NCBI GenBank assembly: GCA_024399965.1
Contig: JAKSNJ010000014.1
Coordinates: 1 to 40,855 of the forward strand
Direction: 5' to 3'
DNA: 40,855 nucleotides
Source: Paludibacteraceae bacterium
Lineage (GTDB): Bacteria > Bacteroidota > Bacteroidia > Bacteroidales > Paludibacteraceae
Below the pieces are notes generated by a model, which saw nothing but the letters and a program-made list of their open reading frames with translations, had not been told where the DNA came from and did no database searches. This document shows positions 12,661-40,670 of the stretch, piece after piece. The position numbers and the translations under genes are program-made. Numbering within the stretch: the stretch's first letter is position 1; every line of letters begins with the position of its first letter.

Positions 12661-13461
12661 ATGCGTCGATATAGTTTAATCATAGTGTTCCTGCTCACGA
12701 TTGCGGTAACCTCTGCCAAGGAGGTTACCCGCGTCGTCGAGTGCGGAGACAAAATCACACTCAACGCACAGCCCATCAACGGGTTCCACTTTGTGCGTTG
12801 GAATGATGAATCGGAAGATTCATTACGCACTATTGAGGTCTATCAGAACGCTATCTTTACCGCCTTCTTCGCACCAAACTGTGGAGACTATGCAGCCCTT
12901 CCTCTCGTCAATCGGTACGATTGGATTCTCATGCTCCACGTACGCAAAATAGTGGAAGAAATGCACTACACCTTATCCCCCGACCGAGTTCGTTGGTATC
13001 GTGTTGTAGGTGATCCGGATAGTGTGGACGATTTGGACTCTACGGACGACCCAAAAGACACTTATTTGGGAGAAGGTTATTCGTTCACATTGGACAAAAA
13101 CCTGCAACAAACAGGTGTTTACTACGCAGTTGTTGATCTTATGGAAGACGATGGATTGGAGTGTTATGGACTATCCCGAACCGAACTGATTTCTTTTGTC
13201 AGAACCGATACTCCACAACGTGAAATCCGACTACTGCCCAATACAATCCATCCGGGTGGCATATTGCACTTAGTCGGACTCAATCCCGACATATCCACCA
13301 CGATACGCATCTACTCCGTTACAGGACAATTACTGATGGACTATTGTACCATCGGTGCTGAAGAATACCTGCTCACTGCTTATCCTAACACCGGCATTTA
13401 TGAAGTGCAAGTGTTATCGGATGAGGATAATATAGTTCTAAGATACCTTGTACATCAATAA
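12661..13461 (+). CDS. Small secreted protein with T9SS-type C-terminal domain, set A
   Basis: 266 aa; signal peptide MRRYSLIIVFLLTIAVTSA. The mature N-terminus is again the second half of a beta repeat (VVECGDKITLNAQPINGFHF, VRWNDESEDSLRTIEV). A middle domain of unknown function follows (LPLVNRYDWILML, RVRWYRVVGDPD, YLGEGYSFTL). The last 75 residues fit a type A T9SS sorting domain: TTIRIYSVTGQLLMD, YPNTGIYEVQVLSD, LRYLV. It may therefore be exported by the T9SS (SprE is encoded at 21195) and attached to the surface. Very similar to the 16609 protein in the middle and C-terminal parts. Confidence 0.8.
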   Translation: MRRYSLIIVFLLTIAVTSAKEVTRVVECGDKITLNAQPINGFHFVRWNDESEDSLRTIEVYQNAIFTAFFAPNCGDYAALPLVNRYDWILMLHVRKIVEEMHYTLSPDRVRWYRVVGDPDSVDDLDSTDDPKDTYLGEGYSFTLDKNLQQTGVYYAVVDLMEDDGLECYGLSRTELISFVRTDTPQREIRLLPNTIHPGGILHLVGLNPDISTTIRIYSVTGQLLMDYCTIGAEEYLLTAYPNTGIYEVQVLSDEDNIVLRYLVHQ

Positions 13462-27044: not shown

Positions 27045-27062
27045 GTTAACTAATTTGATAAC
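27045..27062 (+). repeat. 18-bp element, copy 1
   Basis: GTTAACTAATTTGATAAC, an imperfect palindrome (GTTA...TAAC), 20 bases before the ATG of the HigA-like gene, where an autoregulatory operator would sit. Confidence 0.7.
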
Positions 27063-27082: not shown

Positions 27083-27490
27083 ATGAATTCATTTTACGAA
27101 GAACATTGGAAGCAAAAGAAGATATTACGCTGTGAGGACGAAACGCCTCTCACTCCTATTGATGAGTTGATGCGTCGTTTGGGTATATCGGAAAATATTG
27201 GGGAGATTTATCCCAATGTTATCAGTCCGGGGGTGCTCATTCAGGCGGTTTTGGATGATGCCCAAATCACGCAATCGGAGTTAGCGCATCAAATGGGTGT
27301 CACGCGTACAGCTGTACATTTGTGGATACACGGACAACGAACATTGACCATAGAGAATGCTCTTGCTTTGGAATTTAATTTAGGTATTCCGGCGCACATT
27401 CTTCTTCGTATGCAAGCGGATTTCCAATTATCTATTGCTCGTCATCCCGAATTAGCTTGGGACCAAGTCCCTCGCCATTCAACATTGTAA
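27083..27490 (+). CDS. HigA-like helix-turn-helix regulator (orphan antitoxin)
   Basis: 135 aa. Residues about 48-115 are an XRE/HigA-type DNA-binding domain: SPGVLIQAVLDDAQITQSEL, AHQMGVTRTAVHLWIHGQR, ALALEFNLGIPAHILLRMQ. HigA antitoxins are normally about 100 aa; this one has an extra 40-residue N-terminus with Lys-rich and Asp/Glu-rich parts and no clear domain. No HigB or RelE-like toxin gene lies on either side. The 18-bp elements around it are candidate binding sites. It may regulate genes nearby or be the remnant of a toxin-antitoxin pair. Confidence 0.75.
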   Translation: MNSFYEEHWKQKKILRCEDETPLTPIDELMRRLGISENIGEIYPNVISPGVLIQAVLDDAQITQSELAHQMGVTRTAVHLWIHGQRTLTIENALALEFNLGIPAHILLRMQADFQLSIARHPELAWDQVPRHSTL

Positions 27491-27492
27491 CT

Positions 27493-27510
27493 GTTAACTA
27501 ATTTGATAAT
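27493..27510 (+). repeat. 18-bp element, copy 2
   Basis: GTTAACTAATTTGATAAT, beginning 3 bases after the stop of the HigA-like gene; 17 of 18 bases are the same as copies 1 and 3. Confidence 0.7.
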
Positions 27511-27663: not shown

Positions 27664-27681
27664 GTTAACTAATTTGATAAC
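27664..27681 (+). repeat. 18-bp element, copy 3
   Basis: GTTAACTAATTTGATAAC, the same 18 bases as copy 1 and 619 bases downstream of it, in non-coding DNA. Confidence 0.7.
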
Positions 27682-27741
27682 AGAATTTGGATGAGAGTAA
27701 GTGAGAGGGGTGAGGTTCATAGAGAAGGGAACAAGGCAGAG

Positions 27742-27773
27742 GTTGGTTACGAGGAAGAGTAACCAACTTTTTT
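27742..27773 (+). terminator. Rho-independent terminator
   Basis: A perfect 9-bp stem, GTTGGTTAC (27742-27750) and GTAACCAAC (27759-27767), with an 8-base loop, followed directly by six T. It insulates the defence operon from the genes upstream. Confidence 0.85.
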
Positions 27774-27824: not shown

Positions 27825-27856
27825 TTTGCGTATGCCAAATATTTTTAGTATCTTTG
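27825..27856 (+). promoter_or_regulatory. Bacteroidota-type promoter of the four-gene defence operon
   Basis: TTTG (27825-27828), 20 bases, TATCTTTG (27849-27856). The first ATG follows at 27919 after a 62-base leader. It matches the consensus in both boxes and spacing. Confidence 0.8.
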
Positions 27857-27918
27857 CGCGAGAATTTGTAATATAGAAGAGTTATAACGTTCAGTTTATG
27901 TAGAGATATTTATCAAAA

Positions 27919-29160
27919 ATGGCATCTAATAACGAAATATCAGTATTGCCAAAAACAAATTATACCGTTATAGATTTGTTTGCTGGTTGTGGTGGGTTGT
28001 CCTTGGGTCTATATCAAGCAGATTGGAAAGGTCTGTTTGCTGTAGAGAAGAATCCCAATGCATTTGAAACATTAGAATATAATTTGCAAAAGAATAAGTA
28101 CCATTTTGATTGGCCATCATGGCTTCCACAGGGGCCTATTGATATCCTTGATTTAAATAAGAATTACAAAGCGGAACTGAAAAAGTTACGCGGTTCCGTG
28201 GATTTGGTAGCAGGAGGTCCTCCTTGTCAAGGCTTTTCAATGGCTGGCAAGCGCATCAAGGATGATATTCGAAATCAATTGGTATTCGCCTATATTGAAT
28301 TCATTAAAATAGTGCGTCCGAAACTACTATTATTTGAAAATGTTAAGGGTTTTACATACGCCTTTGACAAAAAGAACAATCCTGATGCTGTTCCCTATTC
28401 CCAAATAGTCATTGAAAAATTGCGTGCATTAGACTATGATGTAAAAGATCAAGTAATCGATTTTTCAGAGTTTGGTGTTCCTCAAAGGCGTAAAAGATTT
28501 ATTTTAGTGGGGGTTTATAAGGGAAAAGGAGGTTCGGCACAACAATTTATGACCTTATTGCGCAATCAAAAAGCAGATTTTTTGGCACAGCGTCAGTTGC
28601 CTGAACATCCGACGATTCAAGATGCCATATCAGATTTATTGCGTAATAACGGAGAAACAGCAACGCCAGACCGAAAAGGTTTTATGTCCGGTTTGTATGG
28701 GCAAGCGGAAACAGATTATCAAGAATACATGCGGAAAGATATAAAAAAAGATACTGCTATTCCCAATAGTCATAGTTTTGCAAAGCACACAACAGATAAA
28801 GTGGAATGTTATAAGAGGTTATTGGCAAGTTATCCAATTCGTGGGAAACGTATTGATGGTAAGGAACGTGAAATATGGAATATTAAACAGCGTGGTATCA
28901 CGGTACTTGACTCGCAAGCAGTTTCTCCAACTATCACAGGACATCCGGATGACTATTTGCACTATGCAGAGCCGCGTATTATGACGGTGCGCGAGTGTGC
29001 TCGAATTCAGTCTTTCCCTGATTGGTATGAATTTAAGAGCAAATATACCACCGGAGGAGAAATGCGTAAAAAAGAAGTTCCTCGATATAGTCAAGTAGGT
29101 AACGCTATTCCGCCATTATTTGCGGAGCAGGCAGGATATGTATTAAAAGAAATGTTGTAA
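27919..29160 (+). CDS. DNA (cytosine-5) methyltransferase 1, first gene of the GHKL/CHAT operon
   Basis: 413 aa with all key C5-methyltransferase motifs in order: I, DLFAGCGGLSLG (19-30); IV, AGGPPCQGFS with the catalytic Cys103; VI, ENV (140-142); VIII, FGVPQRRKRFILVG; IX, ARIQSFPDW; X, GNAIPPLFAEQAG. It should therefore be active and methylate cytosine C5; the target-recognition region is about residues 215-355. It differs clearly from the other two methyltransferases of the island. The next gene starts one base after its stop, so its main partner appears to be the ATPase/protease module rather than a classical restriction enzyme. AT-rich compared with the genes to the left. Confidence 0.93.
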   Translation: MASNNEISVLPKTNYTVIDLFAGCGGLSLGLYQADWKGLFAVEKNPNAFETLEYNLQKNKYHFDWPSWLPQGPIDILDLNKNYKAELKKLRGSVDLVAGGPPCQGFSMAGKRIKDDIRNQLVFAYIEFIKIVRPKLLLFENVKGFTYAFDKKNNPDAVPYSQIVIEKLRALDYDVKDQVIDFSEFGVPQRRKRFILVGVYKGKGGSAQQFMTLLRNQKADFLAQRQLPEHPTIQDAISDLLRNNGETATPDRKGFMSGLYGQAETDYQEYMRKDIKKDTAIPNSHSFAKHTTDKVECYKRLLASYPIRGKRIDGKEREIWNIKQRGITVLDSQAVSPTITGHPDDYLHYAEPRIMTVRECARIQSFPDWYEFKSKYTTGGEMRKKEVPRYSQVGNAIPPLFAEQAGYVLKEML

Positions 29161-29161
29161 G

Positions 29162-31708
29162 ATGGAAGATGTTTTGCAATTTAAAATAAGTTCCGCCCTA
29201 AAGGATCTAGTTGGAAAAGATTTAATAACGAATGATAATGTTGCCATCTTTGAGTTAGTAAAGAATTCTTATGATGCGTATGCTAGTCATGTAGTTATAA
29301 CATTTTCGGAAGACAAAATTACTATTGCCGATGACGGCAAAGGTATGACTTATTCTGATTTAAAAGAGAAGTGGCTATTTCTTGGATTTTCCGGCAAAAA
29401 AGATGGTAGTGAGGACATTATAGACAAACAGGTGTCTTATAGAGATAAAATCAAACGATATTATGCAGGAGCGAAAGGAATTGGTCGTTTCTCCTGTGAT
29501 CGTTTGGGCCGTTTTCTAACCATATCTACTCGAGTTGAAGATTCGGACCATACGGAACAAATTTCTGTTGATTGGGCAAAATTTGAAGTGGATCAAAAAA
29601 TTGAATTTGCAAATGTTGATGTTACACATCGTTCTATAGACACGTATAGTAATTTCCCTAATAAATCTACACACGGAACTATTATTGAGATAACGGGACT
29701 GCATGACCAAGAGACCCCTTGGACAAGAAAACATATATTAGAACTTAAAAGGTCTCTTCAAAAATTAATTAATCCATATTCCGAATCTAATGATTTCACG
29801 ATAGAAATTGTTTGTGAAAGGGAAAAGGAAGAAGATCAGAAGAAAATTAGTGATGGTCAAGGTTATGATCGTGATATTGTTAATGGTTATCTAAAAAATA
29901 GTATTACCGAAATTTTAAAACTGAAAACGACTCAAATCGATGTCAAAGTTCAAAATGATTATATATATACGACATTAAGTGATCGAGGTGTAGATATTTA
30001 TAAAATCAAAGAACATAATATCCTTTTCCCTTTGATTAAAAATGGTACGGTATCATTATCGTTCCTTAACCGCGCAGCAAAGTATAATTTTTCTCGTATA
30101 ATGGGAGTTGATTCGATTAACTATGGATCGGTCTTTTTATTTAGAAACGGATTTCGAATCCTGCCATTTGGGAACACAGGAGATGATAGTTGGGGACTTG
30201 ACTTTAGAGCACAACAAGGGCGTGCTAGGTTTATAAGTAGCCGTGATTTGATGGGGCGTGTTGATATCTTTGTAGAAAACACGAATGAATTGAAAGAAGT
30301 ATCTAGTCGCGATAGCGGGTTGGTTGATTCTCCCATGTCTCGTCAGGTGAAGAAACTTTTTGAAGTAAGCGAGAGACGATTGGAACGATATGTTGCTGGT
30401 GTTCTTTGGGGAGAAGCTTTTTTAAAGAATGAGTACTACAAAGATAAGGAAGAAGGAGAGACCGCAAGAAAAAAACTTCAGGAAATGGATAGGGATGCCG
30501 ATAATCCTTCATTTGTGTTGGATTCAAGTCTGGGTAGTAAAATTGATTTTGTGCGTTTGATTAAAACATTGTCGTCGGATGGCAATGTGGAGGTTTTGTA
30601 TTACAATACGGAACTTGCAAATTTTGTATCTCCTAATTTCGCTCCAGAAGATATCAAGCCGCAATTCATTTCAGATTTGGAAACAATTGCAGAACGTACG
30701 GGTAATGTTGACCTTATTAACAAGATTGAGGATGCAAAACGGCAATTAGCGGAACTTACGCGTCTTAAGGAAGATGCGGAACGTAAGGCCGCAGAGGCAG
30801 TGCGGTTGCAACAAGAAGCAGAAGAAAAAGCTCGTAAAGCGGAGTTAGAAAGAATCGCAGCAGAAGCAAGAGCAAAAGCGGCAGAAGAGCGAAAACGCTT
30901 AGCAGAAATAGAAAAACTCCGTGCAGAAAATGCAAAAGTAAAGGCAGAAAATGAGCGATTGGTAGCAGAGAAAAAGGCAAAAGAGGAAGAAGAAAAGCGT
31001 AAAAAAGCAGAAAGAGAAAAGAAGATAGAGACTTTAAAGGTAGAGTTTTACAAAAAAGTCTCAAATCCCGATACTGACGCTTTAATTCATCATGTGAAGA
31101 ATAATAATGGTAAGATTGAGGATAAGGTTAATAACCTCTTAAAGTTTTTGAAAAACAACATATTTGATACGACGACCCAGTCATATTTGATTGAATCTCT
31201 ATCATCTATTAAAAACTTATCTAAGAGAGCATTGACTGCAACGGATTTGATTTTAAGGTGTGATTTGTCAGAATCGGATTCTCAAAAAATCAACTTGCCT
31301 TTATTTATTAGTGGCTATTTAAAGGGAGAATCCAATACAAAAATCAAGTGTCATTTCTCTTCTACAGTTGATTTGTTTGCCGTATTTGGCAGCAAATTAG
31401 ATTTGGCATTGTTATTAGATAATTTCATAAAGAATTCCGAGGATTGGCACGCTGAAAATATTTGGATGAATTGCTCTCGCGTACATGACTCAATGCAATT
31501 GGATGTCTACGACGATGGTGATGGCTTGTTAGACTCATTTAAGAGTAATCCTTCTCAAATTTTTGATTTTGCTAAATCTGGTAGATCTGAAGGAACAGGA
31601 TTGGGCATGTATTTAATCAAGGAGACATTGAATACACTAAACGCCTCAATAGCCATTGATACCCCTATCAATAATAAAGGAATGCATTTTAAAATAACTT
31701 TTAAGTGA
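29162..31708 (+). CDS. Double GHKL ATPase: Hsp90/MORC-like N-terminus, coiled coil, histidine-kinase-like C-terminus
   Basis: 848 aa. The N-terminal GHKL domain is intact: N-box E31-x-x-x-N35-x-x-D38 (ELVKNSYDA), G1 box D57-D-G-K-G61 and G2 box GAKGIGRF (103-110), all of the HATPase_c_3/MORC/Hsp90 type. Up to about 430 come the follow-on transducer-like parts (GTIIEITG, FRNGFRILPFG). Residues about 520-625 are a long Glu/Lys/Ala coiled coil. A dimerisation-helix-like segment follows with His643-His644 in LIHHVKNN. Residues about 748-848 form a second ATPase of the histidine-kinase type: N-box LLLDNFIKNSEDW, G1 DDGDG (784-788), G2 GTGLG (811-815). I infer a sensor that may autophosphorylate, with the next gene as receiver. 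No membrane segment, so cytoplasmic. Confidence 0.85.
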   Translation: MEDVLQFKISSALKDLVGKDLITNDNVAIFELVKNSYDAYASHVVITFSEDKITIADDGKGMTYSDLKEKWLFLGFSGKKDGSEDIIDKQVSYRDKIKRYYAGAKGIGRFSCDRLGRFLTISTRVEDSDHTEQISVDWAKFEVDQKIEFANVDVTHRSIDTYSNFPNKSTHGTIIEITGLHDQETPWTRKHILELKRSLQKLINPYSESNDFTIEIVCEREKEEDQKKISDGQGYDRDIVNGYLKNSITEILKLKTTQIDVKVQNDYIYTTLSDRGVDIYKIKEHNILFPLIKNGTVSLSFLNRAAKYNFSRIMGVDSINYGSVFLFRNGFRILPFGNTGDDSWGLDFRAQQGRARFISSRDLMGRVDIFVENTNELKEVSSRDSGLVDSPMSRQVKKLFEVSERRLERYVAGVLWGEAFLKNEYYKDKEEGETARKKLQEMDRDADNPSFVLDSSLGSKIDFVRLIKTLSSDGNVEVLYYNTELANFVSPNFAPEDIKPQFISDLETIAERTGNVDLINKIEDAKRQLAELTRLKEDAERKAAEAVRLQQEAEEKARKAELERIAAEARAKAAEERKRLAEIEKLRAENAKVKAENERLVAEKKAKEEEEKRKKAEREKKIETLKVEFYKKVSNPDTDALIHHVKNNNGKIEDKVNNLLKFLKNNIFDTTTQSYLIESLSSIKNLSKRALTATDLILRCDLSESDSQKINLPLFISGYLKGESNTKIKCHFSSTVDLFAVFGSKLDLALLLDNFIKNSEDWHAENIWMNCSRVHDSMQLDVYDDGDGLLDSFKSNPSQIFDFAKSGRSEGTGLGMYLIKETLNTLNASIAIDTPINNKGMHFKITFK

Positions 31709-32403
31709 TGGAACAACGACATTTGATTTTAGTAGATGAACAGTCTCAGGTTGATAGATTGAAACGTATACATGATAGCCTCAAAAGTGAGGGTATAGAA
31801 TTGGTATCTGCGGAAATCAATCCTAATGATTTTTTTACTAGAAAAGAGAATGGGGATATTGAATTTGATGCGGAGAAGATGAAAAATAAACTACGATCTA
31901 TTCCATTTATACGCCATTTAGATATTTTTGCGACAGATTACAATCTAGTCGCTGACGAATTGAAAGGTATAGATGTCATTGCTATATTATACGATTTGAT
32001 ACCTCATTATTGCAAGCAGATGGTTATTTATTCTGCTCAAATAGAGACGGTTATTGATGACATTATTAATAATAGAGCATCTGGACTGAACGAGAAAGAA
32101 AGAATGATTAAATTATTATCTAAGAATGACATCGCTTATCTTAGTAGTGTTGGTGAATTTGAGAACAAATTTAAACAACTAATTGTACAAGAAAAAAATA
32201 TTTCGATTGACGACAGACTGATTGACTTGTTATATGCATTGGATAATGAAAGATTTAGATGCTCTATTCCTGAATTCAAAGAGAATAAGATAAGTGAGAT
32301 TGGGGAGAAACTTTTAAACAATGATTCGGGAGCCATTGCATTAAGAAAAGAAATAGCAGAACAAATTTTGGCATATATAACATCTATACAAGGTTATGAG
32401 TAA
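31708..32403 (+). CDS. Receiver-like (response-regulator-like) protein
   Basis: 231 aa from ATG 31708, overlapping the TGA of the ATPase gene (TGATG); a GTG one codon earlier is also possible. The N-terminal 125 residues follow a receiver fold: strand HLILVDEQ with acidic DE, a later DIFATDYNLVADEL in which Asp77 (counting from the ATG) is the possible phosphoacceptor, then GIDVIAILYD and QMVIYSAQ, where the Ser takes the place of the usual Ser/Thr. The conserved late Lys is not obvious, so phosphorylation is uncertain. The C-terminal 100 residues are helical with no known output domain. Its place between a kinase-like and a protease-like gene suggests it passes the signal. Confidence 0.6.
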   Translation: MEQRHLILVDEQSQVDRLKRIHDSLKSEGIELVSAEINPNDFFTRKENGDIEFDAEKMKNKLRSIPFIRHLDIFATDYNLVADELKGIDVIAILYDLIPHYCKQMVIYSAQIETVIDDIINNRASGLNEKERMIKLLSKNDIAYLSSVGEFENKFKQLIVQEKNISIDDRLIDLLYALDNERFRCSIPEFKENKISEIGEKLLNNDSGAIALRKEIAEQILAYITSIQGYE

Positions 32404-33112
32404 GGTTTTTGCCATATATCCACTTGATAAAAGCAGTTCTAATTCCTTTCTAAATAGGATTCATACTTTTGAAACGAAAATGCTTAGAGATGATTGGCAT
32501 TGTTTCAAGATCCATTTCTCTGATGAGGAACATGAAAAAAGTATCAAATCTGCAAACGAAAGCCATTTTGTGCTCTTTATGGGTCATGGTGGCGATACTC
32601 AATTACATGGCGCGTGTGGAAAGTATGGAGAACTTACTTGTGATGCAATAGCAGGGAATGAGAATCCCCAATTTTATGATAAGGAAGTGTTTATTGACAC
32701 TTCTAATATTGGGAGATTTCACAATCAAATCTTTTTTTGTTTTTCATGCAATTCTAATAAATCCAGTACAAAAAGTTTATCAAGATTGGCTATTGCTAAT
32801 GGAGTACAAACTTTCGTCGGATTTGGTAATATTCCGACAGATTACGTAGAGGGTGTTAAATTCTCCAAACGATGTATAGCATTCTATAAAGGAATAATTG
32901 TTAAAATTATAAAATACTCTATTTTTTACGCAGTGGAAAATAATGAAACAGTTGATAACCTAGTACAAATAATCAAATTATTAACAACAAAGGAGATTCA
33001 ATCATTAGAAATGCAGAGACCATTTCATGATAAAGATGCTATTTTAAATCAATTGTATAAGTTTAAGAACGATATACGAATATATGGTGATCGATATGCT
33101 AAAATATATTAA
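32396..33112 (+). CDS. CHAT/caspase-like cysteine protease
   Basis: 238 aa, start overlapping the receiver-like gene by 8 bases. The layout matches clan CD proteases of the CHAT/caspase type: a strand plus His64 in FVLFMGHGGD, then the strand IFFCFSCNSN with Cys118 in the position of the CHAT motif S-A-C-x-S, followed by LSRLAIANGVQTFVGFG, which corresponds to the helix and strand after the catalytic Cys. There is no extra sensor or effector domain, so it would depend on the neighbouring genes for activation. In bacterial immunity such proteases often cut a toxin or host protein after infection is sensed. The substrate is unknown, and no gasdermin-like gene is seen in the window. Confidence 0.65.
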   Translation: MSKVFAIYPLDKSSSNSFLNRIHTFETKMLRDDWHCFKIHFSDEEHEKSIKSANESHFVLFMGHGGDTQLHGACGKYGELTCDAIAGNENPQFYDKEVFIDTSNIGRFHNQIFFCFSCNSNKSSTKSLSRLAIANGVQTFVGFGNIPTDYVEGVKFSKRCIAFYKGIIVKIIKYSIFYAVENNETVDNLVQIIKLLTTKEIQSLEMQRPFHDKDAILNQLYKFKNDIRIYGDRYAKIY

Positions 33113-33282: not shown

Positions 33283-34314
33283 ATGGCAAGATATAATGTA
33301 TTAGATTTATTTTGTGGTTGTGGCGGACTTTCTCATGGATTTGAGAATGCCGGTTTTGATGTGTTGCTTGGTATTGATTTGTGGAAGGATGCCTTGGTAA
33401 CGTATAAATACAATCATAAGAATAGTGAAACGCTTTGTGCTGATTTATCTCAACTAGAGGCTTCTATAGTTGCAGAAAAAATTGGAGGCAAGAAAGTGGA
33501 TGTTATTATTGGTGGTCCTCCTTGTCAAGGTTTCTCAATCGCAGGGAAACGTATTGTGAATGACGATCGAAATAAACTCTATAAGTCGTTTGTACGCATG
33601 GTGGAATATTTCAAACCACGTGCATTTGTACTAGAGAATGTGCCTAATATCCTTTCGATGGGTGACGGTGTAATAAAAGATGCCATCATTAAGGATTTTG
33701 AAGGACTTGGATACAAGGTGGTTACCAAAGTGCTTCTCGCTTCCGATTATGGAGTCCCGCAGAATCGCAGACGTGCTATTTTTGTGGGAATGTTAGAAAA
33801 AATGTTTGATTTTGAAATTCCCAAGGTAGAGCATAAAGTGACATGCTCAGAAGCTCTTTCCGACCTTCCTGATTATACGGTTGAGAATGGGAAAGGTTAT
33901 CCTATAGAATGCAAAAGTGATTATCAGCGATTGGTTCGTTCTCGCTCAAAGGCATTGTATAATCATGAGGTGACAGTTCATAATGAGCAGACTGCGCATA
34001 TCATATCATTGGTACCTGATGGAGGAAACTATAAAAATCTTCCGAAAGAGTATCAAGAGACGAGAAAGGTTCATATTGCATGGACGCGCCTTAATAGTCA
34101 AAAGCCAAGTATAACAATTGATACCGGACATCGCCATCATTTCCACTACAAATACAATCGTATTCCGACTGTTAGAGAAAGTGCACGAATTCAATCATTC
34201 CCCGATGATTTTGTTTTCTTGTGCAGTAGGACGAGCCAATATAAACAAGTGGGTAATGCTGTTCCACCGATAATGGCACAGGCGATTGCTCAACATCTTA
34301 TGAATCAGCTATGA
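33283..34314 (+). CDS. DNA (cytosine-5) methyltransferase 2
   Basis: 343 aa from ATG 33283 (MARYNVLDLFCGCGGLSHG); an earlier in-frame start at 33175 adds 36 residues with no family match. Motifs: I, DLFCGCGGLSHG; IV, IGGPPCQGFS with catalytic Cys81; VI, ENV (118-120); VIII, YGVPQNRRRAIFVGM; IX, ARIQSFPDD; X, QVGNAVPPIMAQA. Complete and compact, like M.HhaI in size. Its stop overlaps the start of the DUF3883 nuclease by 4 bases, so it belongs to the same restriction-modification unit. Confidence 0.93.
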   Translation: MARYNVLDLFCGCGGLSHGFENAGFDVLLGIDLWKDALVTYKYNHKNSETLCADLSQLEASIVAEKIGGKKVDVIIGGPPCQGFSIAGKRIVNDDRNKLYKSFVRMVEYFKPRAFVLENVPNILSMGDGVIKDAIIKDFEGLGYKVVTKVLLASDYGVPQNRRRAIFVGMLEKMFDFEIPKVEHKVTCSEALSDLPDYTVENGKGYPIECKSDYQRLVRSRSKALYNHEVTVHNEQTAHIISLVPDGGNYKNLPKEYQETRKVHIAWTRLNSQKPSITIDTGHRHHFHYKYNRIPTVRESARIQSFPDDFVFLCSRTSQYKQVGNAVPPIMAQAIAQHLMNQL

Positions 34315-35795
34315 AGAAAGAAACAGAATTCTACAGAGTTCCTAATGCTTTTTGGCATCGAATTCACTTTGTAAGACCGCGTTTTAAAAGCAACATAGAG
34401 AACGTTCTGCTCTATATGGCTAACGAATGTTGTCGCATCCCCGATTGTTCAAGCGAGGAATATACTAAACGCTATCTTAATGCCATTAGGATGTTCCCTG
34501 GCAATATAGATATGTCCTTAAAAACGCTGAATAATTGGCGAACAGAAATACCTGCGTTGTTTAGTTTCTACGAAGAGGATAAAGGTGTTGGTATGACACG
34601 AACGACGTCGATGGCTAAATTCTTGCATGAGCAGCAAGACTTAACTCAATTCTTGCGTCTCTTTTTGTTCTCGTTTCAATTTCCCGGTGGTCATTTGAAA
34701 CCACAGGATTTGAAGGATATAATTTATAACAAGATACGCTTTAAACCTGCTCAATTAATAATCCAAGTGTTAATGGCTGGGAATGAAATTCTTGGCAGCA
34801 TGGAAAGTCTAAAAGAAATGTCTATTTCTGCCGAGGAAGCGACCTATTGCATATTTAACGATATTCGTGTGACAAGTGGTGTGCGCACTCCCCGAGAGGT
34901 TGCGCAGATTATACTTGATAACCGAAAGAAAAAACTTAAGTATTACAATAAAATTGATCCTCAGTCCTTATCACTAACAGGAACGGCTCGTACCAAGGGA
35001 GATATGATTCGTTATGCTGGAGATATATTGGACTATATGGAATTGGCCAATTTGTTGGAAAACCATGACGGATATTTCTATATGAAGGGAAATGAACGTA
35101 CAACAATCAATGCTTTTGCTGAGGATAAAACGTTCTTCAAAGGATATGAATATTTGTATGGTGAGAAGTCTGTTGAAACCGCTATGATTGCTGCAGTAGA
35201 ACAAGATTGGTTTAGGTATGTCAATGACTCAATGAATCCAGATCTATTCAAGACCGACATAGAATCAATTATCAAACCTGACGATGAAATTACGGTTGTA
35301 TATGACAATCGTATTAAACAGGTGGTTGCTATGGACGATACGACGCTCAAAGATATCGGTAACTTGGGTGAATCAATTATTTGTGGTCATGAGAAGATGC
35401 GTTTAAAGATTTGTGGATATGAACAGTTTGTTCGCCTAGTACAAATTGTAGATAGTCCATCTTATCACCCCGGTTTTGATATTGATAGTTACGAAGGAGA
35501 TGGAACCGAAGATCATCGCTATATTGAAGTGAAGACCACAATTAGTAAAAGAAAGATTCAGATGTATGGATTCCATATGTCACCCAATGAGTGGCGTGTA
35601 GCAGGAACAATCAAGGAACACTATTGCGTTTATCGTTTAATGCTTAGTGAGCAAAGTAAAGTGCTTTTCATTCTCCGCAATCCGGTTCAACTCTATAAGA
35701 CTGATATGATAGAAGCAGAACCTCGCGATGGCATGGAAATAATGTTCCCCGTGGATCGATTTGAACAGACAGAATTGTTGACATGGAGAAATTAA
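34311..35795 (+). CDS. Restriction endonuclease-like protein with C-terminal DUF3883
   Basis: 494 aa. The N-terminal two thirds are helical and unrecognised, perhaps target recognition (WRTEIPALFSFYEE, VRTPREVAQIIL). The C-terminal 140 residues fit DUF3883, a PD-(D/E)XK nuclease domain: IGNLGESIICGHE, then GFDID with Asp390, a spacer, and YIEVKTT with Glu406 and Lys408; then FHMSPNEWRVA and HYCVYRLM. All catalytic residues are present. It overlaps methyltransferase 2 at its start and methyltransferase 3 at its end (13 bases), so it is very likely the cutting subunit of this type II system. Confidence 0.85.
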   Translation: MKKETEFYRVPNAFWHRIHFVRPRFKSNIENVLLYMANECCRIPDCSSEEYTKRYLNAIRMFPGNIDMSLKTLNNWRTEIPALFSFYEEDKGVGMTRTTSMAKFLHEQQDLTQFLRLFLFSFQFPGGHLKPQDLKDIIYNKIRFKPAQLIIQVLMAGNEILGSMESLKEMSISAEEATYCIFNDIRVTSGVRTPREVAQIILDNRKKKLKYYNKIDPQSLSLTGTARTKGDMIRYAGDILDYMELANLLENHDGYFYMKGNERTTINAFAEDKTFFKGYEYLYGEKSVETAMIAAVEQDWFRYVNDSMNPDLFKTDIESIIKPDDEITVVYDNRIKQVVAMDDTTLKDIGNLGESIICGHEKMRLKICGYEQFVRLVQIVDSPSYHPGFDIDSYEGDGTEDHRYIEVKTTISKRKIQMYGFHMSPNEWRVAGTIKEHYCVYRLMLSEQSKVLFILRNPVQLYKTDMIEAEPRDGMEIMFPVDRFEQTELLTWRN

Positions 35796-37237
35796 AAGTT
35801 GCATCGTTGTTTTGTGGTTGCGGTGGTATGGATTTAGGTGTCATCGGTGGCTTTTCGTATCTTGGTAAGGAGTACGGAGAAAATTCTTTCGAAATTGTGT
35901 ATTCTATTGATAACGACGAGTATTGCACTAAAATATACAACCAAAATTTTCAGCATAAATGTGAGATAAAGGATGTGCGCGAGATAGACGTAAAGTCTAT
36001 GCCAAATTTTGATATACTGATTGGTGGATTCCCCTGCCAGTCATTCTCTATCTCGGCACAAAACCCTCCTCGTTTGGGATATAAGGATGAAAGAGGTATG
36101 CTATTCTTTGAGATGGTCAAGATTCTCAAGGAAAAGAAGCCTCGTTTCTTCATAGCTGAGAATGTTAAAGGAATTATGTCTGCCAACAAGGGCAAAGCAT
36201 TCCCAGTGATTATTGAGGAATTCCGAAATGCAGGCTACATCGTGACACACAAACTTCTTTTAGCAAGCGACTATGGTGTTCCTCAAAAACGTGAGCGTGT
36301 CATTATAGTAGGTTTCCGTGATGCAGAAGATTTTGCAAAATTTAGATTTCCAACACGAGTTCCGATAAGAGAGCGTAAGGTTCTTGGTGATGTTATTCAG
36401 GAAGAAAATAACCATAATGAGTCTCTTTTTTTTAGTGAACGTGCTGTGGCTGGAATGATGGCTGTTCGTGAGAAAATGAATAAAGGTCGAGCGATGCGTC
36501 TGGATGAGCCATGCAATACGATAAGTGCGCATTTGGCTAAGGTTAGTTTAAATAGTACCGACCCTGTGTTTATGGTTGGGGAGCGTTTCCGTCGATTCTC
36601 AACTCGTGAGGCAGCTCGTATTCAGTCTTTCCCGGATTCGTTTGTACTAAATTCCGTTGCAGAGGTTCGCCAATACAAAGCAATTGGAAATGCTGTTCCT
36701 CCGGTGATGATGTGGCATGTGGTTAAATCGTTGCAAAACGTTATGTCTATTCATCAGTTGAATATGAAGGAAATGCTAAGTCTTTTTCCAGATTCAATTG
36801 TACGGAATAACTCATTAGACAATACATCAAAAGGAACTGGCACATCATGTAAATTAGATATTGATGATACCAAAAATGTATTGGTTAGCTTGGTAAAGGC
36901 GGATAACATGGAGCAATATCTTGATCAATCCGCCAAAATTTATTACACTGGTAAGAAATTCCCCTCTACAGTTCACCTTAATAAATTGTACTACTTCATG
37001 CCATACGTGAAAGGCAAAGGTATTAAGGATTTATATTTTATTAAGGTTGCTCGCGTTGGTACTCGAAAAGAAGGGAAACCTGACAATGACCCTAACGATT
37101 TGCGTTTAGTCTTTGAAATAGAATTTATAAAATCTCTCTTTGACGAATATAAAAAGATAAATTTGCCAATTTGGGACACATTCAATGATACAACTCTTGC
37201 TGGACTAATGAATGCATTACTATGCCCGACCGTATGA
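35783..37237 (+). CDS. DNA (cytosine-5) methyltransferase 3 with C-terminal extension
   Basis: 484 aa. Motif I, SLFCGCGGMDLG; IV, IGGFPCQSFSISAQ with catalytic Cys85; VI, ENV (126-128); VIII, YGVPQKRERVIIVG; IX, ARIQSFPDSF; X, AIGNAVPPVM. The methyltransferase ends near residue 330. The remaining 150 residues are an extra domain: a linker, then a beta-rich unit (YYTGKKFPSTVHLNKLYYF, DLYFIKVARVG, LRLVFEIEFIKSLF) that I do not recognise. It could be an accessory DNA-binding or regulatory domain. Overlaps vsr by 16 bases, the usual pairing of a C5 methyltransferase with a repair enzyme for T:G mismatches. Confidence 0.9.
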   Translation: MEKLKVASLFCGCGGMDLGVIGGFSYLGKEYGENSFEIVYSIDNDEYCTKIYNQNFQHKCEIKDVREIDVKSMPNFDILIGGFPCQSFSISAQNPPRLGYKDERGMLFFEMVKILKEKKPRFFIAENVKGIMSANKGKAFPVIIEEFRNAGYIVTHKLLLASDYGVPQKRERVIIVGFRDAEDFAKFRFPTRVPIRERKVLGDVIQEENNHNESLFFSERAVAGMMAVREKMNKGRAMRLDEPCNTISAHLAKVSLNSTDPVFMVGERFRRFSTREAARIQSFPDSFVLNSVAEVRQYKAIGNAVPPVMMWHVVKSLQNVMSIHQLNMKEMLSLFPDSIVRNNSLDNTSKGTGTSCKLDIDDTKNVLVSLVKADNMEQYLDQSAKIYYTGKKFPSTVHLNKLYYFMPYVKGKGIKDLYFIKVARVGTRKEGKPDNDPNDLRLVFEIEFIKSLFDEYKKINLPIWDTFNDTTLAGLMNALLCPTV

Positions 37238-37668
37238 CTTCCAAACAGCGCCACCGCTGCATGTCCCATATACACAGCAGCGGAACCAAGCCCGAAAAAG
37301 CGGTGCGGAGTTGGTTGTGGAGACACGGTTACCGCTATCGGCTGAACGTGAAAAGCGTACCGGGCAAGCCGGATATCGTGATGCGCAAATACCGCACTGC
37401 CATCTTTGTCAACGGCTGTTTCTGGCACGGACACGAGGGCTGCAAGGATTTCGTGATGCCCAAGTCCAATGTAGCATTCTGGCAGTCCAAAATAGACAGG
37501 AACAGGGAACGCGACATACGCAATTATCAATTATTAGCGGACAACGGCTGGCAGGTTATTGTCATTTGGGCTTGCAAACTGAAGGAGGATATGGAACGGA
37601 CCATGTCGGAAACCGTAATCGCCCTGAACCGCAATTATTTGCGTATCGTCCAAAACAAGAAACGGTGA
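37222..37668 (+). CDS. vsr: Very short patch repair (Vsr) endonuclease
   Basis: 148 aa. Nicks 5' of the T in T:G mismatches that arise from deaminated 5-methylcytosine. MTSKQRHRCMSHIHSSGTKPE is the family N-terminus; Asp51 in GKPDIVM and His69 in GCFWHGHEGC match the catalytic Asp51 and His69 of the E. coli enzyme; Cys66, His71, Cys74 and Cys118 fit the structural zinc site. Distinctly richer in G+C than the three methyltransferase genes, so it may have joined the unit from a different source. Starts inside the end of methyltransferase 3. Confidence 0.92.
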   Translation: MPDRMTSKQRHRCMSHIHSSGTKPEKAVRSWLWRHGYRYRLNVKSVPGKPDIVMRKYRTAIFVNGCFWHGHEGCKDFVMPKSNVAFWQSKIDRNRERDIRNYQLLADNGWQVIVIWACKLKEDMERTMSETVIALNRNYLRIVQNKKR

Positions 37669-37710
37669 TGGTAGAGCCGGGTAAGGGAACGATATAAAAA
37701 CACTGCCACA

Positions 37711-38601: not shown

Positions 38602-39552
38602 ATGCCAAAGTTCCTCTATATGTTTCTGTGCGCAATTCTTTTACTGGGATTCTTGTCCTGCAACAAGGATGATGATCTTACGAAATGTATTGCAAAGACT
38701 GGCAATGCCACAGATATTACGGCATTCACCGCTAAAATTTCCGGTTATTGCAATCAAAAGAATACCACAGGACTATCTGTAACATACGGAATAGAATACT
38801 CCAATACCGATCTTACAAGGAACGCTATCGTTCTAACTGCCTCTGGAATGGACGAAAAGGGTCTTTTTTCTGTTGATATTGAAAATCTAAATCCGGGAAC
38901 AGAATATTTCTACCGCACATTTGTCTTATACAACAGAGTTTATTCATTTGGAAATGTGAAGAGTTTTACAACATTAGCGCATCCCGAGCCGGAAAAGGTG
39001 GACTTGGGAGTAGGATTAATGTGGGGCTCATTCAATATCAGCACATCTGCTCCTACTAATTATGGGAAATATTACTCATGGGGAGAGATCAAAACCAAGT
39101 CATGCTATACATGGGAGTCATACCTGTGGAGTGACGATGATGTTGCTTCACGAGAATTGGGAGGTTTATGGCGTACGCCTACCGCTGAAGAGTTTGGTAA
39201 ACTTGTTTCTGGGTGCTATTGGCAATGGTTTGATAACTACAAAAATTCAGGTGTCAAAGGTTACGCGGTATATAAGGCAAAAAATAATGAAGATAGAGGA
39301 AAAAAGAACTCCGAACCTATTTCTGCATCTTATTCGCCGGACAATGACGTCCATATCTTCCTTCCGGCTTCCGGATATGCTTCAAAAGAGGAGTTATATG
39401 ATATTGGGAGCAACGGAAATTATTGGACCTCATCTCTTTCCCCATCAACTTCAAACAGTGCTTATTATATCTATTTTGATTCCGAAAACATAGAGGCAGG
39501 TAAGTGTGAGCAACGCTATTACGGACAATCTATCCGTCCTGTCTTTGATTGA
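38602..39552 (+). CDS. Lipoprotein with Fn3-like and FISUMP domains, copy 1
   Basis: 316 aa. Lipobox LGFLSC with Cys20. Residues about 25-125 form a beta-sandwich similar to fibronectin type III (GLSVTYGIEYS, NLNPGTEYFYRTFV). The C-terminal 180 residues fit the FISUMP family of Bacteroidales: KVDLGVGLMWGSFNIS, KYYSWGEIKTK, DDDVASRELGGLWRTPT, GVKGYAVYKAK, IFLPASGY, YWTSSL, RYYGQSIRPVFD. These are surface or periplasmic proteins of unknown ligand. The pair appears to be read from the promoter at 38506. Confidence 0.85.
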   Translation: MPKFLYMFLCAILLLGFLSCNKDDDLTKCIAKTGNATDITAFTAKISGYCNQKNTTGLSVTYGIEYSNTDLTRNAIVLTASGMDEKGLFSVDIENLNPGTEYFYRTFVLYNRVYSFGNVKSFTTLAHPEPEKVDLGVGLMWGSFNISTSAPTNYGKYYSWGEIKTKSCYTWESYLWSDDDVASRELGGLWRTPTAEEFGKLVSGCYWQWFDNYKNSGVKGYAVYKAKNNEDRGKKNSEPISASYSPDNDVHIFLPASGYASKEELYDIGSNGNYWTSSLSPSTSNSAYYIYFDSENIEAGKCEQRYYGQSIRPVFD

Positions 39553-39578: not shown

Positions 39579-40670
39579 ATGAAAAAATTTACTTTATTGA
39601 TCTGTTTTGTTATCGCTTTGGTTTCGTGCGAAAAATCCAAATTGGAAAACCCTGACATTGCCCAAACCGGTGAAGTTATCGAGTTAGGCGCTTTTTCTGC
39701 CAAAATACAAGGTGTTTGCCGACAAAAACCGGAAAAGGCATTGTCTGTCATCTATGGTATAGAATATTCCCAAAATGACCTCAACACAAACGCGACAGAC
39801 GTTGAGGCCACACAAATAGATTTTAATGGCACATTTGATGTTTGCATCACTGGACTGACTGCCAATACATCATACTACTATCGCGCCTATGTGTTATTCA
39901 ACAAAGTCTATTACTTCGGTGATATCAAAACTTTTGTCACATCCTCACACCCACAGCCGGAAAAGGTGGACTTAGGTGTGGGAGTCAAATGGGCCTCATG
40001 CAACATAAGCGCCTCCTCACCGGAAGAAGTTGGAAAATATTATGCATGGGGTGAGACCGCGCCTAAATCGTTTTACAGTTGGGGTACGTATGCGTGGTGT
40101 AAAGATGGGCAAGAACTGCAACTGACGAAATATGTTCCTACTGATGCTCCGGAATACTGGTTCGGTAATGGTCCCATTGATGGCAAGACTATGCTTGACC
40201 TTGATGACGATGTGGCCTATAAGGAACTTGGCGGGCCGTGGCGTATGCCAACTATTCAAGAATTCGGCGACTTGGTATCGGGCTGTTTCTGGCAATGGTG
40301 TACTGACTACAAAGGTTCCGGCGTTCGGGGATATATTGTATTCAAGGCGAAAACTCCGGAGGATAGAGGCAAGAGACAATCTCCGGAATATTCAGAAGAT
40401 ATCGTGATAGGGGACTATTCCATAGATGATGTCCACATCTTTCTTCCCGCTGCAGGGTTCCGTTGGGACGATGTTACAATGGGAGACAAAGGAGATGTGG
40501 TTTTGGGATACTACAGATCTTCCTCTCTTCAAGCAGTTGGTATTCCCAATTATGCTGGTGGCACTCCCAATTATGCAGTTGATTTGTGTTTCAGTGTCTT
40601 CTATACAGATACTGCCGATTATTACGAGCGTTGTTTCGCAATGCCCATCCGCGCTGTAGCGGATTATTAA
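39579..40670 (+). CDS. Lipoprotein with Fn3-like and FISUMP domains, copy 2
   Basis: 363 aa, 26 bases after copy 1 and clearly its paralogue: lipobox ALVSC with Cys17, ALSVIYGIEYSQ, GLTANTSYYYRAYVLFN, KVDLGVGVKWASCNIS, KYYAWGETAPKS, DDDVAYKELGGPWRMPT, IFLPAAGF, and AMPIRAVADY at the end. It is longer owing to inserts (about residues 172-200 around YVPTDAPEYWFGNG and near the end). No enzyme residues recognised. Confidence 0.85.
   Translation: MKKFTLLICFVIALVSCEKSKLENPDIAQTGEVIELGAFSAKIQGVCRQKPEKALSVIYGIEYSQNDLNTNATDVEATQIDFNGTFDVCITGLTANTSYYYRAYVLFNKVYYFGDIKTFVTSSHPQPEKVDLGVGVKWASCNISASSPEEVGKYYAWGETAPKSFYSWGTYAWCKDGQELQLTKYVPTDAPEYWFGNGPIDGKTMLDLDDDVAYKELGGPWRMPTIQEFGDLVSGCFWQWCTDYKGSGVRGYIVFKAKTPEDRGKRQSPEYSEDIVIGDYSIDDVHIFLPAAGFRWDDVTMGDKGDVVLGYYRSSSLQAVGIPNYAGGTPNYAVDLCFSVFYTDTADYYERCFAMPIRAVADY

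What the first reader, a model, noticed from the sequence alone, without database searches (positions are those of the whole stretch)
27825..33112. Possible new defence system: C5 methyltransferase, double-GHKL sensor kinase, receiver-like protein and CHAT-like protease
Seen: one promoter after a strong terminator, then four genes with gaps or overlaps of +1, -1 and -8 bases. The products are a complete C5 methyltransferase, an 848-aa protein with two full GHKL ATPase domains, a receiver-like protein and a His64/Cys118 protease of CHAT/caspase type. Known: GHKL (MutL/MORC-like) ATPases occur beside methyltransferases in restriction-type operons; two-component-like immunity exists (Detocs); CHAT and caspase-like proteases act as immune effectors. 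Inferred: the ATPase senses unmethylated or otherwise foreign DNA, signals by phosphotransfer to the receiver-like protein, and this activates the protease to stop growth. I do not know of a described system with this exact set.
Basis: partly seen in the sequence, partly recalled or inferred. Interest (0 to 1): 0.88.

Follow-up and report, generated by a model that had tools for sequence, protein, structure and literature searches.

The report
Methylase-linked phosphorelay with swappable toxins
The four genes look like a bacterial alarm system, probably against viruses, in which a DNA-watching protein passes a phosphate signal to a killer enzyme; related genomes suggest that the killer half is exchanged as a unit for a different one.

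Summary
The window holds a four-gene operon: C5 methyltransferase, 848-aa double-GHKL protein, receiver protein, and a His64/Cys118 caspase-like protein. In 82 analysed loci the GHKL gene is always followed by a receiver gene, and 80 have a C5 methyltransferase nearby. Two main output types occur. In 17 loci, all from Bacteroidota, a short receiver (228-245 aa) precedes the protease gene. In 61 loci of many phyla a longer receiver (276-349 aa) carries a C-terminal domain with an invariant RNxxxH-type motif, read as a HEPN ribonuclease. Reverse searches found both outputs only in this operon (4 of 4, two of them already in the profile; 7 of 7 new). The GHKL gene is a mosaic: its first 500-600 residues go with the methyltransferase, its histidine-kinase end with receiver and effector. 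Two genomes with matching genes on both sides differ sharply in just this output cassette. This supports a phosphorelay from a DNA-sensing half to a toxin. The methyltransferase, GHKL-kinase and regulator core was described in 2021 for a sister branch (PMC8011034), without these outputs. Phage defence is inferred.

The parts
27738..27771 (+). Intrinsic-terminator-like stem ahead of the operon
   Evidence: fold -16.6 kcal/mol, z -5.7, 0 of 200 shuffles; T run in the sequence
27825..27856 (+). Bacteroidota-type promoter match TTTG-N20-TATCTTTG
   Evidence: positions; consensus recalled
27919..29160 (+). C5 cytosine DNA methyltransferase with its conserved motifs
   Evidence: PF00145 E 3.5e-57; motifs at aa 21, 101, 140, 189, 392
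29162..30661 (+). GHKL protein, sensor half (aa 1-500): MORC/MutL-like ATPase, related to the N-terminus of BbrUII/HgiDII restriction enzymes
   Evidence: HATPase_c_3 E 2.5e-19; NF050001 E 1.4e-21 over aa 13-216, below that model's cut-off; E31, N35, D57, G59, G61 in 82 of 82
30662..31051 (+). GHKL protein, charged linker (aa 501-630), proposed recombination joint
   Evidence: DNA similarity to HEPN-type L010 ends at 30827; to L012, L013 and L011 it ends at 30700, 30631 and 30327; 54% identity to L010 in aa 501-630 against 11% in 631-740
31055..31708 (+). GHKL protein, histidine-kinase end (aa 632-848): phosphoacceptor His643 (31088-31090) plus HATPase_c
   Evidence: HATPase_c E 2e-14; H643 82 of 82, N758 82 of 82
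31708..32403 (+). Receiver protein, phosphoacceptor Asp77 (31936-31938) and a C-terminal extension
   Evidence: D10, D77, G87, Y108 invariant in 17 of 17; hhalign to the receiver part of the REC-HEPN alignment, prob 97.9, E 4e-13
32396..33112 (+). Caspase-like cysteine protease candidate, His64 (32585-32587) and Cys118 (32747-32749)
   Evidence: H64, C118 in 21 of 21; C14 profile puts both on its catalytic His and Cys in close relative L008, i-E 3.7e-4 for 21 sequences

Best explanation
A modular, methylation-associated phosphorelay suicide system. The C5 methyltransferase marks the cell's own DNA. The MORC/MutL-like N-half of the GHKL protein acts as an ATP-driven sensor of DNA, most likely DNA lacking that mark. 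Its state switches on the histidine-kinase end of the same protein, which phosphorylates itself at His643 and passes the phosphate to Asp77 of the receiver. The phosphorylated receiver then unleashes the output: here a caspase-like protease made by the adjoining gene, in most relatives analysed a HEPN ribonuclease fused to the receiver. The result is growth arrest or death of the infected cell. Shown here: gene set, conserved catalytic residues, linkage, and sequence evidence that kinase end + receiver + effector are exchanged as one cassette under a methyltransferase + sensor half. Inferred: the trigger, phosphotransfer, the enzyme activities, and defence.
For: 82 of 82 analysed GHKL loci have the receiver directly downstream (gap -41 to +11 bases), and 17 of 17 protease genes follow the receiver at -17 to +1. 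A C5 methyltransferase lies within three ORFs in 80 of 82. Receiver length tracks the output: 228-245 aa in 17 of 17 protease loci and 276-349 aa in 61 of the 65 others; all 61 share R253 and H258. Reverse searches: the protease profile hits 4 of 395 genomes, all in the operon (two are members of the profile, two new); the HEPN-part profile hits 7 of 375, all in the operon and none a near-copy of a locus used. Trees: the protease label needs 13 changes on the methyltransferase tree and 11 on the sensor half, but 2 on the kinase end and 2 on the receiver. One protease clade is rejected for the sensor half, p-AU 5.3e-8. Same-site swap L037/L038. Cross-output DNA similarity ends before the His codon in 59 of 59 pairs, against 34 of 99 same-output pairs. 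Spearman: protease vs kinase end 0.68, receiver 0.38, methyltransferase 0.31, sensor half 0.11. Operon GC is 35.4% against 47.8% on the left, and a BpuJI-type R-M cluster follows.
Against: No phage or biochemical data. [quoted passage not shown] The residue after the phosphoacceptor His is acidic in only 9 of 82, unlike HisKA. Profile-profile comparison of the protease with CHAT and C14 families is not significant (prob 0.4 and 3.6). The trees of kinase end and receiver are short and carry warnings of long branches meeting; by plain identity the window's kinase end is hardly closer to distant protease-type loci (L006: 17% and 29%) than to HEPN-type L010 (11% and 30%). No match for the receiver protein in plasmid or phage records. 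The loci analysed are the best 80 of 204 relatives, so the linkage counts favour full-length relatives.
Confidence: 0.6

Rival explanations
1. Addiction module first, defence second: the same relay watches the methylation of the host's own DNA and kills cells that lose the operon, as selfish R-M systems do by post-segregational killing.
For: Methyltransferase and toxin-like outputs in one operon; in B. pyogenes (L005/L008) ORFs that by eye look like a tyrosine recombinase and a primase lie nearby; low operon GC; 15 of 31 viral-contig loci carry GHKL plus receiver.
Against: The window copy sits beside another R-M system. In plasmid records only two N-half matches were found at E 1e-20.
Confidence: 0.17
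2. A two-component regulator that controls neighbouring restriction-modification genes, as Bellieny-Rabelo et al. proposed for the sister family.
For: Published proposal (PMC8011034). In L061 and L079 a HpaII restriction endonuclease (E 5.3e-144 and 8.5e-141) sits in the operon and the receiver has no extra domain.
Against: Receivers carry a HEPN-like domain or sit next to a protease-like gene; the families that Pfam matched at E 0.01 in the 61 longer receivers include no DNA-binding output. The exchanged cassette includes the effector.
Confidence: 0.13
3. The sensor responds to something other than missing methylation, for example DNA ends, phage proteins or nucleotide pools, and the methyltransferase is a separate passenger or has another role.
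For: No methyltransferase was seen near L073, and it is on the other strand in 17 of 82. PMC8011034 suggests NTP sensing.
Against: A methyltransferase lies nearby in 80 of 82, and its pairwise identities follow the sensor half (rho 0.37) more than the kinase end (0.05). The sensor half is related to BbrUII/HgiDII restriction enzymes.
Confidence: 0.2
4. Chance neighbours: four unrelated genes in a variable island.
For: The window has other R-M genes next door.
Against: Forward and reverse linkage, overlapping genes, co-inherited cassette.
Confidence: 0.01

Closest known systems
TCS-like elements with C5 methyltransferase, HATPase_c_3+HEF_HK+HATPase_c kinase and Response_reg_2 regulator (Bellieny-Rabelo 2021, PMC8011034; text parts 1-4 of 7 and Discussion read)
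   Same: Methyltransferase often upstream of a double-GHKL kinase-like protein and a receiver; kinase without membrane segments (their result); association with R-M genes.
   Different: HEF_HK 0 of 32 and Response_reg_2 4 of 61 at E 0.01, so most likely a sister branch; that paper's main text does not contain the words HEPN, caspase, CHAT, protease or RNase.
Detocs (Rousset 2023; recalled, primary paper not read; its PNP effector listed in PMC10952713, passages)
   Same: Two-component-like signalling to a receiver-linked toxic effector (recalled).
   Different: Detocs has no methyltransferase or MORC-like sensor, a second decoy receiver and a PNP effector (recalled).
paraMORC and MORC GHKL ATPases in R-M operons (Iyer 2008, PMC2292703, passages); BbrUII/HgiDII restriction enzymes (NF050001)
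   Same: N-terminal GHKL ATPase; paraMORCs occur beside cytosine methyltransferases.
   Different: In the passages seen the ATPases are tied to nucleases, helicases or TIR domains; here to a histidine kinase. The word receiver has 0 occurrences there.
Ymh-family HEPN fused to paraMORC ATPases in R-M loci (Anantharaman 2013, PMC3710099, passages)
   Same: GHKL ATPase plus HEPN in an R-M context.
   Different: Direct fusion; the passage names no kinase or receiver between them.

Membership tests
C5 cytosine methyltransferase | PF00145 with catalytic PCQ and ENV motifs | tested here: met
   E 3.5e-57; PPCQGFS at 101, ENVKG at 140
HEF_HK / Response_reg_2 TCS-like family (PMC8011034) | N-terminal HATPase_c_3 and C-terminal HATPase_c in one protein | tested here: met
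   32 of 32 members scanned, out of 82
HEF_HK / Response_reg_2 TCS-like family (PMC8011034) | HEF_HK profile PF19191 | tested here: not met
   0 of 32 at E 0.01; none in own genome (where the control genomes did not ring either)
HEF_HK / Response_reg_2 TCS-like family (PMC8011034) | Response_reg_2 profile PF19192 in the regulator | tested here: not met
   none for the window (in one search the controls did not ring either); 4 of 61 relatives, best 0.0023; 0 of 20 genomes over the cut-off
HEF_HK / Response_reg_2 TCS-like family (PMC8011034) | Core His followed by an acidic residue | tested here: not met
   His 82 of 82; next residue acidic in 9 of 82, His in the window
HEF_HK / Response_reg_2 TCS-like family (PMC8011034) | Regulator linked to GHKL gene and C5 methyltransferase | tested here: met
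   82 of 82 and 80 of 82
Receiver domain | Acidic pair, phosphoacceptor Asp, Ser/Thr | tested here: met
   D10, D77 17 of 17, S109 nearly invariant; hhalign to REC part 97.9%. Pfam Response_reg missed the window protein and matched 45 of 61 longer ones
Caspase-like / CHAT protease (clan CD) | His-Gly and Cys dyad in order | tested here: met
   21 of 21
Caspase-like / CHAT protease (clan CD) | Significant profile match to a clan CD family | tested here: inconclusive
Caspase-like / CHAT protease (clan CD) | Caspase-haemoglobinase fold | not testable with these tools
   structure prediction switched off
HEPN RNase (relatives' output) | Rx4-6H motif (signature recalled) | tested here: met
   R253 and H258 61 of 61; Swt1-HEPN profile best E 2.1e-5; hhalign prob 33.6, E 4.4e-4
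HEPN RNase (relatives' output) | All-helical HEPN fold and RNase activity | not testable with these tools
   structure prediction switched off
Detocs | Second stand-alone decoy receiver and PNP-type effector (recalled) | tested here: not met
   one receiver ORF in the operon; no PNP match among the four proteins
Type II R-M system | Cognate restriction endonuclease gene | tested here: not met
   no endonuclease family among the four proteins; HpaII enzyme inside the operon seen in L061 and L079

The most novel reading that the evidence does not exclude
A modular immune receptor built like a plug-in device: a DNA-sensing front end (C5 methyltransferase + MORC-like GHKL half) is joined at a fixed linker to interchangeable phosphorelay output cassettes (kinase end + receiver + toxin). 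At least two outputs occur, a HEPN RNase and a caspase-like protease, with a HpaII-endonuclease arrangement as a possible third. Recombination inside the kinase gene swaps them repeatedly, so one alarm drives different forms of cell suicide.
Probability: 0.55. Interest if true: 0.86.

Novelty: new variant of a known kind. Interest (0 to 1): 0.76.

Why it matters
If true, it joins two worlds: restriction-modification self-marking and two-component signalling. It would also give the published but unexplained GHKL/HK-regulator pairs an output, cell-toxic enzymes. The natural cassette swaps make direct tests possible: the same kind of sensor with two toxins, and chimeras with predicted behaviour. 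A caspase-like protease under phosphorelay control would be a new way to trigger bacterial programmed death.

Tried and rejected
Structure prediction for the protease and the REC-HEPN protein was switched off; I used profile and motif comparison instead. Pfam CHAT membership was rejected. A PDB sequence search with the protease profile gave no clan CD protein among the 60 of 109 rows shown (mostly P450 BM3, best E 0.013). With the REC-HEPN profile the 60 of 140 rows shown match the receiver part only. The weak G073 hit of the receiver was dropped: two in-frame stops, and no operon among the ORFs listed there. No DNA relative of the GHKL gene in E. coli genomes; none by protein in phage records at E 1e-20; two Stenotrophomonas plasmid records match the N-half only. 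A link between the short receiver's C-terminal part and the HEPN domain was tested and not found (prob 0.4). PADLOC gave partial matches only: REase_II on the ATPase part (6.9e-7) and weakly on the receiver (0.0016) of the window, REase_II, PDC-M43B and MzaB on the ATPase parts of L073, nothing on the protease; not pursued.

I analysed these plus L006 and the window (82) and left out L001-L005 and L007 as duplicates, short pieces or the false hit. Four of the 82 fit neither main type: L032 (contig ends after the receiver), L051 (receiver gene interrupted by an IS), and L061 and L079 (receiver only, HpaII gene). Trees used the quick method. GHKL family scans used 32 of 82 proteins. The receiver-HEPN alignment used all 61 longer receivers; the HEPN-part profile used 26 of them. 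The HEPN_Swt1 comparison profile holds 22 rows, 3 of them below that family's cut-off.
Full report
What is there. The window carries four genes on the + strand, spaced +1, -1 and -8 bases, behind a strong terminator-like stem and a Bacteroidota-type promoter match. Gene 1 is a C5 cytosine methyltransferase with its motifs. Gene 2 is an 848-aa protein with an N-terminal HATPase_c_3 domain (MORC/MutL-like), a charged linker, a conserved His643 and a C-terminal HATPase_c domain. Gene 3 is a receiver-like protein with D10 and D77. Gene 4 is a small protein with a GHG and a CNS motif. The window lies in an 83%-complete genome of 1.66 Mb. Its relative G178 is in the same order and its locus is identical to a Bacteroides pyogenes contig, so the host is a member of the Bacteroidales. 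The operon has 35.4% GC against 47.8% for the left part of the window.

Relatives. A genome-contig scan with the GHKL alignment found 204 relatives and kept the best 80, from Bacteroidota, Pseudomonadota, Bacillota, Spirochaetota, Verrucomicrobiota, archaea and others. With L006 and the window, 82 loci were analysed. All 82 have a receiver gene directly after the GHKL gene; 80 have a C5 methyltransferase within three ORFs, 63 of them on the same strand within two. Of the two without, L051 has an IS in the receiver gene and its methyltransferase further off, and L073 has none seen. GHKL and receiver genes overlap or nearly touch in 82 of 82 (-41 to +11), and receiver and protease genes in 17 of 17 (-17 to +1). 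Because only the best matches were kept, these rates describe close full-length relatives, not all paraMORC proteins.

Two outputs. In 17 loci the receiver is 228-245 aa and the protease gene follows; the 15 of these with a record title, and the window and L006, are all Bacteroidota. In 61 others the receiver protein is 276-349 aa and no protease follows. Outside the receiver, the invariant residues of those 61 are an RG pair and R253 and H258 in an RNxLAH-like motif. This is the Rx4H signature of HEPN ribonucleases (signature recalled). A Swt1-type HEPN profile built here from 22 members finds this part, best E 2.1e-5. Profile-profile comparison gives prob 33.6 and E 4.4e-4 at the motif, while four unrelated controls have E 0.09 or worse. 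Pfam's own HEPN models match only 2 and 1 of 61. The four loci that fit neither type are explained in part: L032 ends after the receiver, L051 is interrupted, and L061 and L079 have a bare receiver of 137 and 124 aa and a HpaII restriction endonuclease gene between methyltransferase and GHKL gene.

Reverse tests. The protease profile hits 4 of 395 genomes of the phylum, and all four hits lie in the full operon. Two of the four are the window and G178, already in the profile; two are new, and in one of these, L093, the GHKL gene is split into two ORFs. The HEPN-part profile hits 7 of 375 genomes; all seven lie in a receiver gene beside GHKL and methyltransferase genes, and none is a near-copy of a locus used to build it. 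Genome G287 carries both types at different places. Among 31 viral-contig loci, 15 carry GHKL plus receiver, 14 of these with a methyltransferase and 2 with the protease.

The protease. H64, C118, G63, G65 and S120 are invariant in 21 of 21 sequences. A caspase-family C14 profile aligns through both residues of L008 (67% identical to the window protein), placing them on its own catalytic SGHG His and DAC Cys (i-E 3.7e-4 for 21 sequences). Pfam C25 and C50, also clan CD (recalled), appear as sub-threshold hits in 4 and 1 of 17. Against this, the window protein itself does not score with C14 (i-E 0.83), Pfam CHAT does not match, and profile-profile scores are not significant: 3.6 for C14, 10.5 for C25 in a C-terminal stretch, 0.4 for CHAT. 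The true relatives C14 and C25 give only 11.8 in the same test, so it has little power. I call it caspase-like, with moderate confidence; no fold could be computed.

The mosaic. The strongest new evidence concerns how the parts are inherited. On a tree of GHKL residues 1-500 the protease label needs 11 changes (at least 9 forced by supported branches), and on the methyltransferase tree 13 (at least 10). On the kinase end (632-848) it needs 2, with all 17 protease loci plus L032 on one branch, support 98.9; on the receiver it also needs 2. Holding the protease loci together is rejected for the sensor half (p-AU 5.3e-8). Caution: the kinase-end and receiver trees are short (219 and 126 columns), and the program warns of long branches that meet. 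The window and the HEPN-type locus L010 share 71% of methyltransferase residues and 65-81% of GHKL residues 1-500, but 11% and 30% in the two parts of the kinase end, and no significant receiver similarity (blastp E 0.40); with protease-type L006 the kinase end is also low, 17% and 29%, but the receivers match at E 1.6e-18. For 59 cross-output pairs with sensor halves at least 60% identical, DNA similarity ends before the His codon in 59 of 59; for 99 same-output pairs it does so in 34. Pairwise identities of kinase end and receiver correlate at 0.55; those of the protease with kinase end, receiver, methyltransferase and sensor half at 0.68, 0.38, 0.31 and 0.11. Pairs are not independent.

A natural experiment. 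Flavobacterium swingsii (L037, HEPN type) and a Bacteroidetes MAG (L038, protease type) carry the operon between matching genes: four upstream genes 67-90% identical, methyltransferase 93%, one downstream SDR-like gene 89%. In DNA, similarity breaks at L037 position 11779 (GHKL codon about 597, ahead of His623) and resumes at 13459. The stretch between, kinase end plus receiver-HEPN, is replaced in L038 by kinase end plus receiver plus protease. Other breaks exist: two short ones upstream, and no similarity beyond the downstream gene. Still, this is what exchange of the whole output cassette should look like. It was the one pair of the 59 in which I saw DNA similarity resume directly behind the cassette.

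Mechanism. The kinase end, the receiver and the effector appear to move together, as expected if the kinase must fit its receiver and the receiver its effector. The methyltransferase and the sensor half are the other side. The sensor half is related to BbrUII/HgiDII restriction enzymes and more loosely to MORC and MutL ATPases (PMC2292703, passages). The simplest model is a relay: unmarked DNA, sensor, His643, Asp77, toxin. Trigger, phosphotransfer, enzyme activity and defence are inferred. Addiction, R-M regulation and another trigger are rivals.

What is known. Bellieny-Rabelo et al. (PMC8011034; abstract, text parts 1-4 of 7 and Discussion read) described GHKL/HK-like and response-regulator-like gene pairs with a 91.6% linkage in 644 regions, next to C5 methyltransferases, and suggested signalling that controls R-M systems. 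Their two profiles do not match the window proteins and barely match the relatives, so I take this as a sister branch. The words HEPN, caspase, CHAT, protease and RNase do not occur in that paper's main text. DefensePredictor (PMC13092281, passages) lists HATPase and REC among the abbreviations of a legend on predicted systems with domains not yet validated. Ten full-text searches of the open-licence library showed, in the rows listed, no paper on this set with HEPN or protease outputs; several of these searches found more papers than were listed. Most subscription papers and preprints are outside that library, so a description elsewhere is possible.

Verdict. Real, conserved and unusual; a new variant of a computationally known TCS-like/R-M theme, with the outputs and the cassette exchange as the new parts. 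Defence remains to be tested.

Noticed in passing
33283-37697: A BpuJI-type R-M cluster directly downstream: C5 methyltransferase, BpuJI_N + NOV_C endonuclease (E 1.4e-117), second C5 methyltransferase, and a 161-aa ORF with no Pfam match.
   Followed up: partly
27045-27062, 27493-27510, 27664-27681: An 18-base element GTTAACTAATTTGATAAC occurs three times (one copy with a mismatch), before and behind the HTH gene 27083-27490; chance expectation 0.03.
   Followed up: partly
27083-27490: A Cro/C1-type HTH protein (HTH_3 E 2.3e-6) upstream of the operon; toxin partner not looked for.
   Followed up: no
L061:2792-3865 and L079:8922-10001: HpaII restriction endonuclease genes inside GHKL operons whose receiver has no output domain; possibly a third output type.
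   Followed up: partly
L197-L211 (viral contigs): A sister arrangement: a GHKL ORF of 701-794 aa in 14 of 15 loci, followed by a 439-465-aa protein, a methyltransferase in 13 of 15, and no receiver match.
   Followed up: no
L051:12295-14440: The receiver-HEPN gene of Gluconacetobacter diazotrophicus looks interrupted by an insertion sequence.
   Followed up: no
G287 (L092 and L251): One genome carries both the protease-type and the HEPN-type operon at different places.
   Followed up: partly
38602-39552 and 39579-40670: Two neighbouring proteins with weak Fn3-like (Pur_ac_phosph_N) and, in the first, Lcl_C matches, perhaps surface proteins.
   Followed up: no
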